Shown piece by piece: positions 56,692 to 57,776 of a DNA stretch of 64,000 nt. Location of the stretch: assembly GCA_030280995.1 (NCBI GenBank), contig JASXTE010000002.1, positions 1,178,001 through 1,242,000 on the forward strand. The letters run 5' to 3'. Below the pieces are notes generated by a model that saw only the letters and a list, made by a program, of their open reading frames with translations, searched no databases and was not told where the DNA came from. Each line of letters starts with the position of its first letter. Positions within the stretch are counted from its first letter, which is position 1. A program made the position numbers and the translations under genes. This DNA comes from Hemileia vastatrix. Its lineage: Eukaryota > Basidiomycota > Pucciniomycetes > Pucciniales > Zaghouaniaceae.

Positions 56692-56710
56692 TGTCACGTG
56701 GCGCGTGACA
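56692..56710. promoter_or_regulatory. Palindrome and TATA of D antisense gene
   Basis: TGTCACG-TGGCG-CGTGACA, 7-bp arms, containing CACGTG. It lies 11 bases before TATAAG (56721-56726) and about 105 bases before the ATG at 56816. Likely a regulator-binding site, by inference. Confidence 0.45.
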
Positions 56711-56815
56711 GATGCCCGGGTATAAGAACTTGAGCTCCGTTGAGAGTAAAACATATTTCCCACACTAATTTCCCTTTCTGTTTACTTATTTATTATTTCA
56801 TCACTTTAATTCATT

Positions 56816-57776
56816 ATGACGGACTTTCCTACACTGACTCCCACGCCTCCACACCCTAAAGCGGATGGGGGTGTTGTCACACGGCAATTTTCAAAGACTT
56901 GCACGGCTTGCGAGTCAATGGAGTATTTCTGCGTGGAGAGCACGGCGACACGAGGGCCTTGCCAGAAGTGCGAGTTTTTCCAATGGAGAAGAGTGGCATG
57001 TGACGCCTTAGCAAAGAATGCCGACATCGAGAGTCGGCTTACTAAGACAAAGTATTGGGTGATCCCTAAAACGAAGGAAGTAGTGGAGGACATCTGGGAT
57101 GTGTCTATTGGGGACGATCAATCAGTGGGAGAGAATGAGGAAGAAGTCAAAGATGATGTGAACATCTGGGTGGCTAGGGCTTGGAACAAGAGGGGGGTCG
57201 TCGAGGAGGAAGTTGATGAATTGGTCGAAGAGGAGGAGGAAATTCCCAAAAAAACGATGGGTGGTCATTGAAAATGACGAAGATGAAAGGGAGGTGGCAG
57301 AGAAGGTCACTCCTAGATTATTTTTGGAGCCTGACCCAATCTTCGAAGTAGGTTCACTCTTTTATAATTTATAAATTTAGTTACTGATGATTCTGTTTTT
57401 TTAGAATTCAGACGTCATCATCGAGGCCCCTACGACAGAAGCATCAAATGTGGAAGCGACCCTTGTGGGACCCACTGCAGTGGAGGATAGATTACCAACT
57501 GTTACCTCGAGGGAGGAAAACGAAGAAACCCTCGATCAAGTTTGGTGGAAGAAACCTCGTCAGATTCGACGAGCGAAATATATTGAAGAATTCAGCGGCG
57601 AGATTGATAACAATATCGATTCCGCTTCCTTTGACGTAGCCGAGGAGTTACTTGAGCTTGGGGAATTGATTCCGGTAGGAGGGGGGGAGAATTTTGAGAA
57701 ATGTAGAAAGGAGATAAGGGAAATTTTGGAGAAGATGAAGGGATTGGTTCGGGAGAAGATAAAAGAGAAAATTTAA
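56816..57776 (+). pseudogene. Antisense gene of element D, Zn2Cys6-like protein, one frameshift
   Basis: Two exons, 56816-57348 and 57404-57776. The intron 57349-57403 runs GTAGGT...TTTTAG and joins in frame. The N-terminus holds six cysteines, CTACESMEYFC then CQKC then a last C: C-x2-C-x6-C-x9-C-x2-C-x9-C. That is the fungal Zn2Cys6 pattern except for a slightly long final spacing. Next comes a tryptophan- and acid-rich middle, then a second exon with KPRQIRRAKYIEEF and a lysine-rich coiled C-terminus ending KIKEKI. A run of seven A at about 57248 shifts the frame and stops it at 57271; one A fewer would continue through to the intron. It lies opposite to D's pol, with its own TATA box. A DNA-binding role is inferred from the cysteine pattern only. 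Confidence 0.7.

What the first reader, a model, noticed from the sequence alone, without database searches (positions are those of the whole stretch)
56692..57776. Chromovirus D independently carries a spliced antisense Zn2Cys6-like gene
A lineage unrelated to A by its RT also has a plus-strand gene between pol and 3' LTR, with a TATA box, a 55-bp intron and cysteines spaced C-x2-C-x6-C-x9-C-x2-C-x9-C. Two lineages carrying a cysteine-cluster gene at the same antisense position suggests selection for the arrangement, perhaps a transposon-encoded transcription factor or silencing antagonist.
Basis: partly seen in the sequence, partly recalled or inferred. Interest (0 to 1): 0.88.

Follow-up and report, generated by a model that had tools for sequence, protein, structure and literature searches.

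The report
Antisense zinc-cluster gene in rust retrotransposon
A jumping element in a genome that looks like a rust fungus carries, back to front beside its 3' end, an extra gene for a small zinc-cluster-like protein that natural selection has kept in many copies, while the one copy first noticed is a damaged example of it.

Summary
The gene is real and belongs to the element. D is a complete chromovirus: 806-bp LTRs, 96% identical, target-site duplication CTGTA. A plus-strand gene (TATA 56721, ATG 56816, 57-bp intron 57348-57404) lies between pol and the 3' LTR. The host genome gave 150 scored copies, D included. In 70 aligned copies ATG is kept in 69, intron GT in at least 67, AG in 68, TATAAGA in 65. 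Exon 1 is under purifying selection: dN/dS 0.25 (0.19-0.33) against 1.07 and 0.91 in shifted frames; integrase region 0.485.

Its fourth cysteine (residue 49) is Cys in only 22 of 70 copies and looks like CpG decay; this copy has lost Cys55, present in 60 of 70. The family motif is C-x2-C-x6-C-x12-C-x2-C-x6-C, canonical Zn2Cys6 spacing, complete in 53 of 70. This copy also lost its frame through a 17-base shorter exon 1.

Two chromoviruses of other subclades carry antisense Cys6 genes there. Precedents: Boty brtn, Grande gene23. Function is inferred; kinship with element A was not tested.

The parts
55900..55904 (.). 5-bp target-site duplication CTGTA at the left flank of D
   Evidence: Same 5 bases follow the end of the 5' LTR in L035, outside the window.
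55905..56710 (-). D 3' LTR, 806 bp, termini TGTCAC...GTGACA
   Evidence: 771 of 806 identical to the 5' LTR; LTR lies 105-107 bp before the ATG in 30 of 30 loci, D included.
56711..56720 (.). Conserved GATGCCCGGG between LTR and TATA: at the polypurine-tract position for the sense strand and just upstream of the TATA of the antisense gene
   Evidence: GATGCCCGG in 50 of 70 copies; GATGCCCGGGTATAAGAAC in 21 of 30. Either role is inference.
56721..56726 (+). TATA box of the antisense gene (TATAAG)
   Evidence: TATAAGA in 65 of 70 copies.
56816..57347 (+). Exon 1 of the antisense gene. In this copy open only to 57268 (151 aa), then stop 57269-57271; length 532 nt, as in 5 other copies; 60 of 70 copies have 549 nt = 183 codons
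   Evidence: purifying selection.
56900..57001 (+). Cysteine cluster. Cys at residues 29, 32, 39, 49, 52, 62 here; family motif is 29, 32, 39, 52, 55, 62
57348..57404 (+). 57-bp intron, donor GTAGGT, branch CTGAT, acceptor TTTAG
   Evidence: GT in at least 67 of 70, AG in 68 of 70, CTRAY-type branch in at least 66 of 70 (counts from the variants listed).
57405..57776 (+). Exon 2, 123 codons then TAA
   Evidence: dN/dS 0.54 (0.41-0.69).
57873..58133 (.). MITE-like insert with inverted termini, between the antisense gene and pol in this copy
   Evidence: 93% to 24365-24614. MITE matches in 3 of 30 loci, only D itself (L036) in the same sense downstream; the exact places of the other two were not checked.
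58859..62287 (-). pol (RT, RNase H, integrase, chromodomain about 58862-59050), with 6 in-frame TGA stops counted in 62287-58888, all in TTTGA context
   Evidence: Pfam RVT_1, RT_RNaseH, H2C2, rve; chromodomain peptide read in the frames; stops.
62291..63702 (-). gag region, broken into pieces
   Evidence: ORF pieces; no Pfam match for 63274-63702.
63771..64000 (-). Inner part of the D 5' LTR, continuing beyond the window
   Evidence: 93% over 230 bp in the window; complete in L035.

Best explanation
D belongs to a high-copy chromovirus family that encodes, besides gag-pol, an accessory gene on the opposite strand between pol and the 3' LTR. The gene has a TATA box that starts 11 bp past the inner edge of the LTR, and one small intron. 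In copies with a full frame, exon 1 codes for a Zn2Cys6-spaced cluster (C-x2-C-x6-C-x12-C-x2-C-x6-C), an acidic stretch and a basic PKK-type motif that may be a nuclear localisation signal; exon 2 adds a basic and a helix-like part. Shown: architecture, multi-copy conservation, splice sites, selection on the exon-1 protein. Inferred: that it binds zinc, enters the nucleus and binds DNA at the LTR edge (the conserved CCCGGG beside its TATA is the first candidate site), regulating the element's own transcription, most likely as an activator. The window's copy is a damaged member with a 17-base shorter exon 1 and one of the six cysteines lost.
For: 150 scored copies of exon 1 in the host genome, D included. 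LTR directly upstream in 30 of 30 loci; chromodomain antisense downstream in 27 of 30 (not in L036 = D itself, L044, L062). ATG 69/70, TATAAGA 65/70, GT at least 67/70, AG 68/70. Exon 1 dN/dS 0.251 (0.191-0.333) against 1.074 and 0.911 in shifted frames, 0.201 without CpG changes; 0.485 for the integrase region in 18 copies plus D. Six canonical cysteines in 53 of 70. Of 60 copies with the 549-nt exon 1, 38 are open to the donor and 18 also have exon 2 open for at least 110 codons. Same slot filled by antisense Cys6 ORFs in L009 (211 aa) and L027 (381 aa, between pol and the second of two identical 181-bp LTRs). AlphaFold of L009: an 82-residue helix (69-150, pLDDT mostly over 90) after the cluster.
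Against: Pfam Zn_clus is reached only below its cut-off (E 0.54 and 1.1 in 2 of 6 copies scanned) and not for the window copy. A profile of 13 copies finds no zinc-cluster structure. AlphaFold of exon 1 alone is uninformative (pLDDT 38); the L009 model has no PDB match. The first loop (ESMEYF) lacks the basic residues that contact DNA in known members (recalled). Exon 2 is only weakly constrained: 0.54 against 0.70 and 1.02, intervals overlapping with the first; without CpG changes its first 70 codons are at 0.78-0.89. Many copies are broken: in 70, exon-1 codons 1-143 have 4 frameshifts and 13 stops, exon 2 has 12 frameshifts and 24 with stops. The basic motif is PKKRR in 3, PKKGR in 2 and PKKRW in 1 of 6 copies shown. 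No homologue in the protein searches. No expression data.
Confidence: 0.6

Rival explanations
1. The protein counters host silencing of the element (for example by interfering with cytosine methylation, heterochromatin or RNAi) rather than activating transcription directly.
For: Rust DNA transposons of seven lineages carry TET/JBP genes, argued to be anti-silencing (PMC12730594, abstract and section 4.2 read). D is hit by TCG-context decay: 6 of 6 pol stops counted are TTTGA, so an antagonist would pay.
Against: No enzyme domain found. A zinc cluster with acidic stretch and basic motif fits a DNA-binding regulator at least as well.
Confidence: 0.2
2. Self-limitation: the antisense transcript or protein restrains the element's own copy number, as antisense RNA or a dominant-negative protein.
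For: The gene is convergent with pol, so its transcript could pair with the 3' end of the genomic RNA; dsRNA roles are discussed for plant cases (PMC7264820, passages).
Against: An RNA-only role does not predict amino-acid selection (0.25 against about 1 in shifted frames).
Confidence: 0.1
3. The protein is a cofactor for particle assembly, nuclear import or integration targeting, the zinc cluster acting as a nucleic-acid or protein contact.
For: Chromodomains are thought to guide insertion to chromatin (recalled); the basic motif could import the complex.
Against: A separate antisense promoter and transcript is an odd way to make a particle component.
Confidence: 0.07
4. A host zinc-cluster gene captured by this copy alone, or a separate gene that happens to sit there.
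For: Zn2Cys6 genes abound in fungi (recalled).
Against: 150 scored copies; in each of the 30 loci examined the LTR lies 105-107 bp upstream.
Confidence: 0.01
5. A chance ORF with chance cysteines.
Against: Frame-specific selection and conserved splice sites in 70 copies.
Confidence: 0.02

Closest known systems
Boty-like chromoviruses of Botrytis and Sclerotinia with antisense gene brtn (Zhao et al. 2011, Virology)
   Same: Fungal element with chromodomain, extra gene antisense between pol and 3' LTR (as cited in PMC7264820, PMC8365987, PMC4227169; section 5 of the first and passages seen).
   Different: Original paper not held, so brtn's protein could not be compared; no passage seen mentions a zinc cluster. 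D is in a genome that looks like a rust.
Maize Grande gene23 / rice RIRE2 / Silene Retand antisense ORFs (aORF-3R; Retand TRP28)
   Same: Antisense accessory gene in the same slot; gene23 has its own promoter and a nuclear protein; TRP28 is predicted to bind DNA (PMC7264820, PMC11963269; passages).
   Different: Plant elements (Retand is a non-chromovirus lineage); different protein domain; the word zinc does not occur in either main text.
Fungal Zn2Cys6 (Zn_clus, PF00172) transcription factors such as Gal4, LAC9
   Same: Canonical cysteine spacing in 53 of 70 copies; a four-sequence profile of antisense clusters ranks LAC9 first in the PDB, but at E = 1.
   Different: Below the Pfam cut-off; basic DNA-contact residues of the first loop absent (recalled feature); carried by a retrotransposon.
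TET/JBP-carrying DNA transposons of rusts
   Same: Accessory gene recruited by different rust transposon lineages (PMC12730594, abstract and section 4.2).
   Different: DNA transposons and an enzyme; [quoted passage not shown]
HTLV-1 HBZ
   Same: Antisense gene of a retrovirus with a nuclear protein (as described in PMC11963269).
   Different: Retrovirus, bZIP protein (recalled); analogy only.

Membership tests
Chromovirus (Ty3/Gypsy with chromodomain) | RT, RNase H, integrase and C-terminal chromodomain in pol | tested here: met
   Pfam RVT_1, RT_RNaseH, Integrase_H2C2, rve; chromodomain peptide read in the frame ending at 58859 (not itself scanned against Pfam); best relative P0001 carries PF00385.
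Chromovirus (Ty3/Gypsy with chromodomain) | Two LTRs and target-site duplication | tested here: met
   806-bp LTRs 96% identical, TSD CTGTA.
aORF-3R (antisense accessory gene between pol and 3' LTR) | Position and orientation | tested here: met
   30 of 30 gene loci have the LTR upstream, 27 of 30 the chromodomain antisense downstream.
aORF-3R (antisense accessory gene between pol and 3' LTR) | Present in most copies of the element family | not tested
   Copies were collected by the gene, so elements lacking it would not be seen.
aORF-3R (antisense accessory gene between pol and 3' LTR) | Protein conserved like other element proteins | tested here: met
   Exon 1 dN/dS 0.25 against integrase region 0.485.
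aORF-3R (antisense accessory gene between pol and 3' LTR) | Own antisense transcript | not testable with these tools
   No RNA data; TATA and splice sites conserved.
Zn2Cys6 (PF00172) proteins | Six cysteines C-x2-C-x6-C-x5-12-C-x2-C-x6-8-C (pattern recalled) | tested here: met
   Family motif x2, x6, x12, x2, x6 in 53 of 70 copies; not met in the window copy itself.
Zn2Cys6 (PF00172) proteins | Pfam Zn_clus at or above gathering score | tested here: not met
   Best 10.9 bits against cut-off 21; seen in 2 of 6 copies scanned; none for the window copy.
Zn2Cys6 (PF00172) proteins | Basic residues in the first loop (recalled) | tested here: not met
   Loop is ESMEYF in 11 of 13 aligned copies, D included, QSMEYF in 2.
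Zn2Cys6 (PF00172) proteins | Binuclear zinc fold, DNA binding | tested here: inconclusive
   AlphaFold of exon 1 pLDDT 38; L009 model without PDB match.
Boty brtn family | Sequence similarity to BRTN | not tested
   Sequence not available; paper not held.

The most novel reading that the evidence does not exclude
Fungal chromoviruses repeatedly carry their own zinc-cluster transcription factor as an antisense gene beside the 3' LTR, a retrotransposon counterpart of retroviral Tat or HBZ. In this rust-type genome it is kept under stronger selection than the integrase, works in trans across a large family, and switches LTR activity on against methylation-type silencing.
Probability: 0.3. Interest if true: 0.87.

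Novelty: new variant of a known kind. Interest (0 to 1): 0.72.

Why it matters
Antisense accessory genes are known in plant LTR elements and in one fungal family, but what their proteins do is open. A conserved protein with a recognisable zinc-cluster layout, present in many copies and under clear selection, makes the question directly testable: does a transposon bring its own transcription factor? If so, a genome with many such elements carries many copies of a gene for a regulator that could also act on host promoters. It also warns that motifs read from one decayed copy can be made and unmade by CpG decay.

Tried and rejected
Protein search with exon 1 alone and with exon 1 and exon 2 separated by X: no match; the first could not reach relatives longer than about 264 aa. 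Viral contigs with D pol, exon 1, a pol alignment and the L009 antisense protein: none confirmed. Plasmid records gave three distant pol matches (27-29%); the L009 antisense protein in phages and the L027 one in plasmids gave none. AlphaFold of exon 1: no confidence. PDB fold search of the L009 model: none. I first explained this copy's lost frame as a slip in a run of A (note, partly repeated in notes); one search showed that wrong: exon 1 is 17 bases shorter. The same loss is in 5 other copies (L037, L038, L039, L043, L048), but the junction differs between D and the two others whose DNA was printed (L037, L043), and the lost stretch lies between imperfect direct repeats, so recurrent slippage is as likely as inheritance. 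I first put the 3' LTR edge at 56709; one search gives 56710. Whether Cys49 is inherited: 21 changes on the tree for 22 copies, shuffled mean 18.8, so scattered, whereas the branch-site variant needs 3 changes for 19 copies. Literature searches for a zinc-cluster or antisense gene in rust or fungal LTR elements led to the plant cases and brtn; no listing or passage seen reports a zinc cluster in such a gene. The library holds open-licence papers only. Element A's antisense family was asked for 12 times without answer, so the comparison with A rests on one copy.

Full report
What the window shows. Element D lies on the minus strand. Its pol (about 62287 to 58859) has RT, RNase H, integrase and a chromodomain. 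Its LTRs are 806 bp and 96% identical (771 of 806), the 3' LTR at 55905-56710, and the same five bases CTGTA flank both ends. The nearest proteins to its integrase region in the 120 listed are unnamed ones (63-64% identity); among named ones Austropuccinia psidii is by far the commonest (up to 58%). With 35% G+C and a 748-Mb assembly, I infer a rust fungus; the species was not identified. All six in-frame stops counted in pol between 62287 and 58888 are TGA in the context TTTGA, as expected from decay of TCG sites, which is reported for Pucciniomycotina (PMC12730594, section 4.2 read). [quoted passage not shown]

The antisense gene. On the plus strand a TATA box starts 11 bp past the inner edge of the 3' LTR (56721). 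An ATG (56816), a cysteine-rich and then acidic exon 1, a 57-bp intron with GT, CTGAT and AG (57348-57404), and exon 2 ending at 57776 follow. The gene runs toward pol, tail to tail. A MITE-like insert (57873-58133) separates them in this copy. Taken alone this is suggestive only: a stop-free frame of 153 codons is reached by 5% of Markov shuffles, two tandem frames of 120 or more by 0.5%.

Copies in the host genome. Searching the host genome with exon 1 gave 150 scored matches, E 3.9e-101 to 1.3e-79, the first being D itself and the others 85-94% identical; 6310 first-look candidates were not all scored, so 150 is a lower bound. In the 30 loci fetched (D included) the LTR lies 105-107 bp before the ATG in 30 of 30, exon 2 follows in 29, and the chromodomain lies antisense downstream in 27; the other three are L036 (D itself, where the fetched stretch ends before it), L044 and L062. 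The loci were found by the gene, so the share of D elements lacking it is unknown.

I aligned 70 copies: D, L037-L065, and 40 more from the lower-identity end of the list. ATG is kept in 69, TATAAGA in 65, GT in at least 67, AG in 68. Pairwise dN/dS in exon 1 (143 codons) is 0.251 (95% by codon resampling 0.191-0.333); read one or two bases out of frame it is 1.074 (0.815-1.478) and 0.911 (0.656-1.293). Leaving out CpG changes gives 0.201 against 1.568 and 1.114. Exon 2 is weaker: 0.535 (0.414-0.691) against 0.700 (0.534-0.933) and 1.021 (0.743-1.428); without CpG changes its first 70 codons stand at 0.78-0.89 and codons 71-98 at 0.34. The integrase region of 18 of the 20 copies tried (L108 and L120 gave none) plus D gives 0.485, against 0.657 and 0.783 in shifted frames; exon 1 in the 20 gene copies of that set plus D gives 0.252. 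So the exon-1 protein is selected, more tightly than the integrase region. Pairs share ancestry, so the interval does not cover tree effects. Decay is also plain: in exon-1 codons 1-143, 4 of 70 copies are frameshifted and 13 have stops; in exon 2, 12 and 24.

The motif. Five are kept in 67 to 69 of 70 copies. Residue 49 is Arg (CGC) in 34, Cys (TGC) in 22, Leu in 6, His in 5, Phe in 3. The change from CCT-CGC to CCT-TGC is in the TCG decay context, and Cys49 is scattered over the tree (21 changes for 22 copies). This is the canonical Zn2Cys6 spacing (pattern recalled). Pfam Zn_clus appears in 2 of 6 copies scanned, below its cut-off (E 0.54 and 1.1). By spacing it looks like a zinc cluster; I do not file it as a PF00172 member.

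The break in this copy. Exon 1 is 549 nt in 60 of 70 copies, 532 in six (D, L037, L038, L039, L043, L048), 548 in three, 523 in one. Of the 60, 38 are open to the splice donor, and 18 also have exon 2 open for at least 110 codons. Full-length copies read into a basic motif after the acidic stretch (PKKRR in 3, PKKGR in 2, PKKRW in 1 of 6 shown), which D lacks in frame. The 17-base loss lies between imperfect direct repeats, and its junction in D differs from that in L037 and L043, so the six may be separate slippage events rather than one inherited one.

Elsewhere. A scan of prokaryote assemblies with a D-type pol alignment found 34 contigs with chromovirus-like pol, which I take for eukaryotic contaminants. 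L009 has gag-pol, then an antisense ORF of 211 aa (210 analysed) with C-x2-C-x7-C-x8-C-x2-C-x8-C, just before a G-rich tract and a likely LTR start; no second LTR is on the contig. L027 has two identical 181-bp LTRs and, between pol and the second, an antisense ORF of 381 aa with C-x2-C-x11-C-x10-C-x2-C-x6-C. The relaxed pattern gave 7 hits in the 34 loci: L009 and L027 antisense, L015 and L031 (which I read as gag zinc knuckles), L021, L022 and L025 in frames of at most 90 codons; Markov sequences give 0.15 per set. Sixteen of the 34 contigs reach at least 600 bp past the pol frame, so 2 of 16 carry it; L028 has antisense ORFs without it. L009, L027 and L028 come from one assembly. D, L009 and L027 fall in three different subclades of the pol tree, L009's place being only moderately supported (85/83). 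L009 and L027 clusters match weakly (E 0.006 for the pair); D matches neither. Repeated gain and ancient origin with divergence both remain possible. The hosts of L009 and L027 are unknown.

What it does. Shown: an element-borne gene with conserved promoter and splice sequences and a selected exon-1 protein. Inferred: zinc binding, nuclear entry, DNA binding, regulation of the element. I favour a self-regulator acting at the LTR edge; the conserved CCCGGG between LTR and TATA (GATGCCCGG in 50 of 70) is a candidate site. Anti-silencing is the main rival.

What is known. Antisense genes in this slot are described in maize Grande, rice RIRE2, Silene Retand, bean PvRetro13 and, in fungi, Boty (brtn) (PMC7264820, section 5 and passages; PMC11963269, passages). 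Boty-like elements have a chromodomain (PMC4227169, passage). The brtn paper itself was not seen. So the arrangement is known; a zinc-cluster protein in it, in a rust-type genome, with measured selection, did not turn up in my searches (listed under Tried and rejected).

Noticed in passing
56960-56962 and 56978-56980 (codons 49 and 55): Of 10 copies that lost Cys55, 8 have Cys49, against 14 of 60 others (Fisher P 0.001), as if the CxxC pair had shifted by three residues. G-to-T changes are also frequent at these two codons (9 and 6 copies; mean 0.6 per G column).
   Followed up: partly
L066-L085 against L106-L125: In the 18 copies with both regions, third-position divergence is 0.158 in exon 1 but 0.063 in the integrase region, while the inner LTR end is 0.129. 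Copies were chosen for diverged exon 1, but pol may have been exchanged or homogenised between subfamilies.
   Followed up: partly
17825-18208 (minus strand): Element A's antisense region has C-x4-C-x4-C-x14-C-x2-C-x6-C, the only other hit of the pattern in the window; the end of that ORF resembles repeat ends at 9141-9245 and 14012-14098, so the gene looks interrupted.
   Followed up: partly
about 49100-55900, and L035 beyond the 5' LTR: A satellite-like array of diverged repeats, many with a palindrome like GTGTCCAGCACAAGTTTGGCCAAACTTGTGCTGGACAC; CpG observed/expected 0.09 over 48600-55900. Similar-looking sequence follows D's 5' LTR, so D seems to have inserted into the array.
   Followed up: no
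42011-44563: A Gypsy gag-pol stretch of 2553 bp without a single CpG, unlike D, although the LTR-like repeats 38901-39703 and 46617-47414 around it are 96% alike.
   Followed up: no
2006-2458: A fragment 84% identical to the D LTR, in the opposite orientation, with no match to the rest of the LTR beyond 2006.
   Followed up: no
L028:5550-6345 (minus strand): A chromovirus with antisense ORFs downstream of pol but no cysteine cluster; L007, sister of L027 in the pol tree, has an antisense ORF running off its contig end.
   Followed up: no
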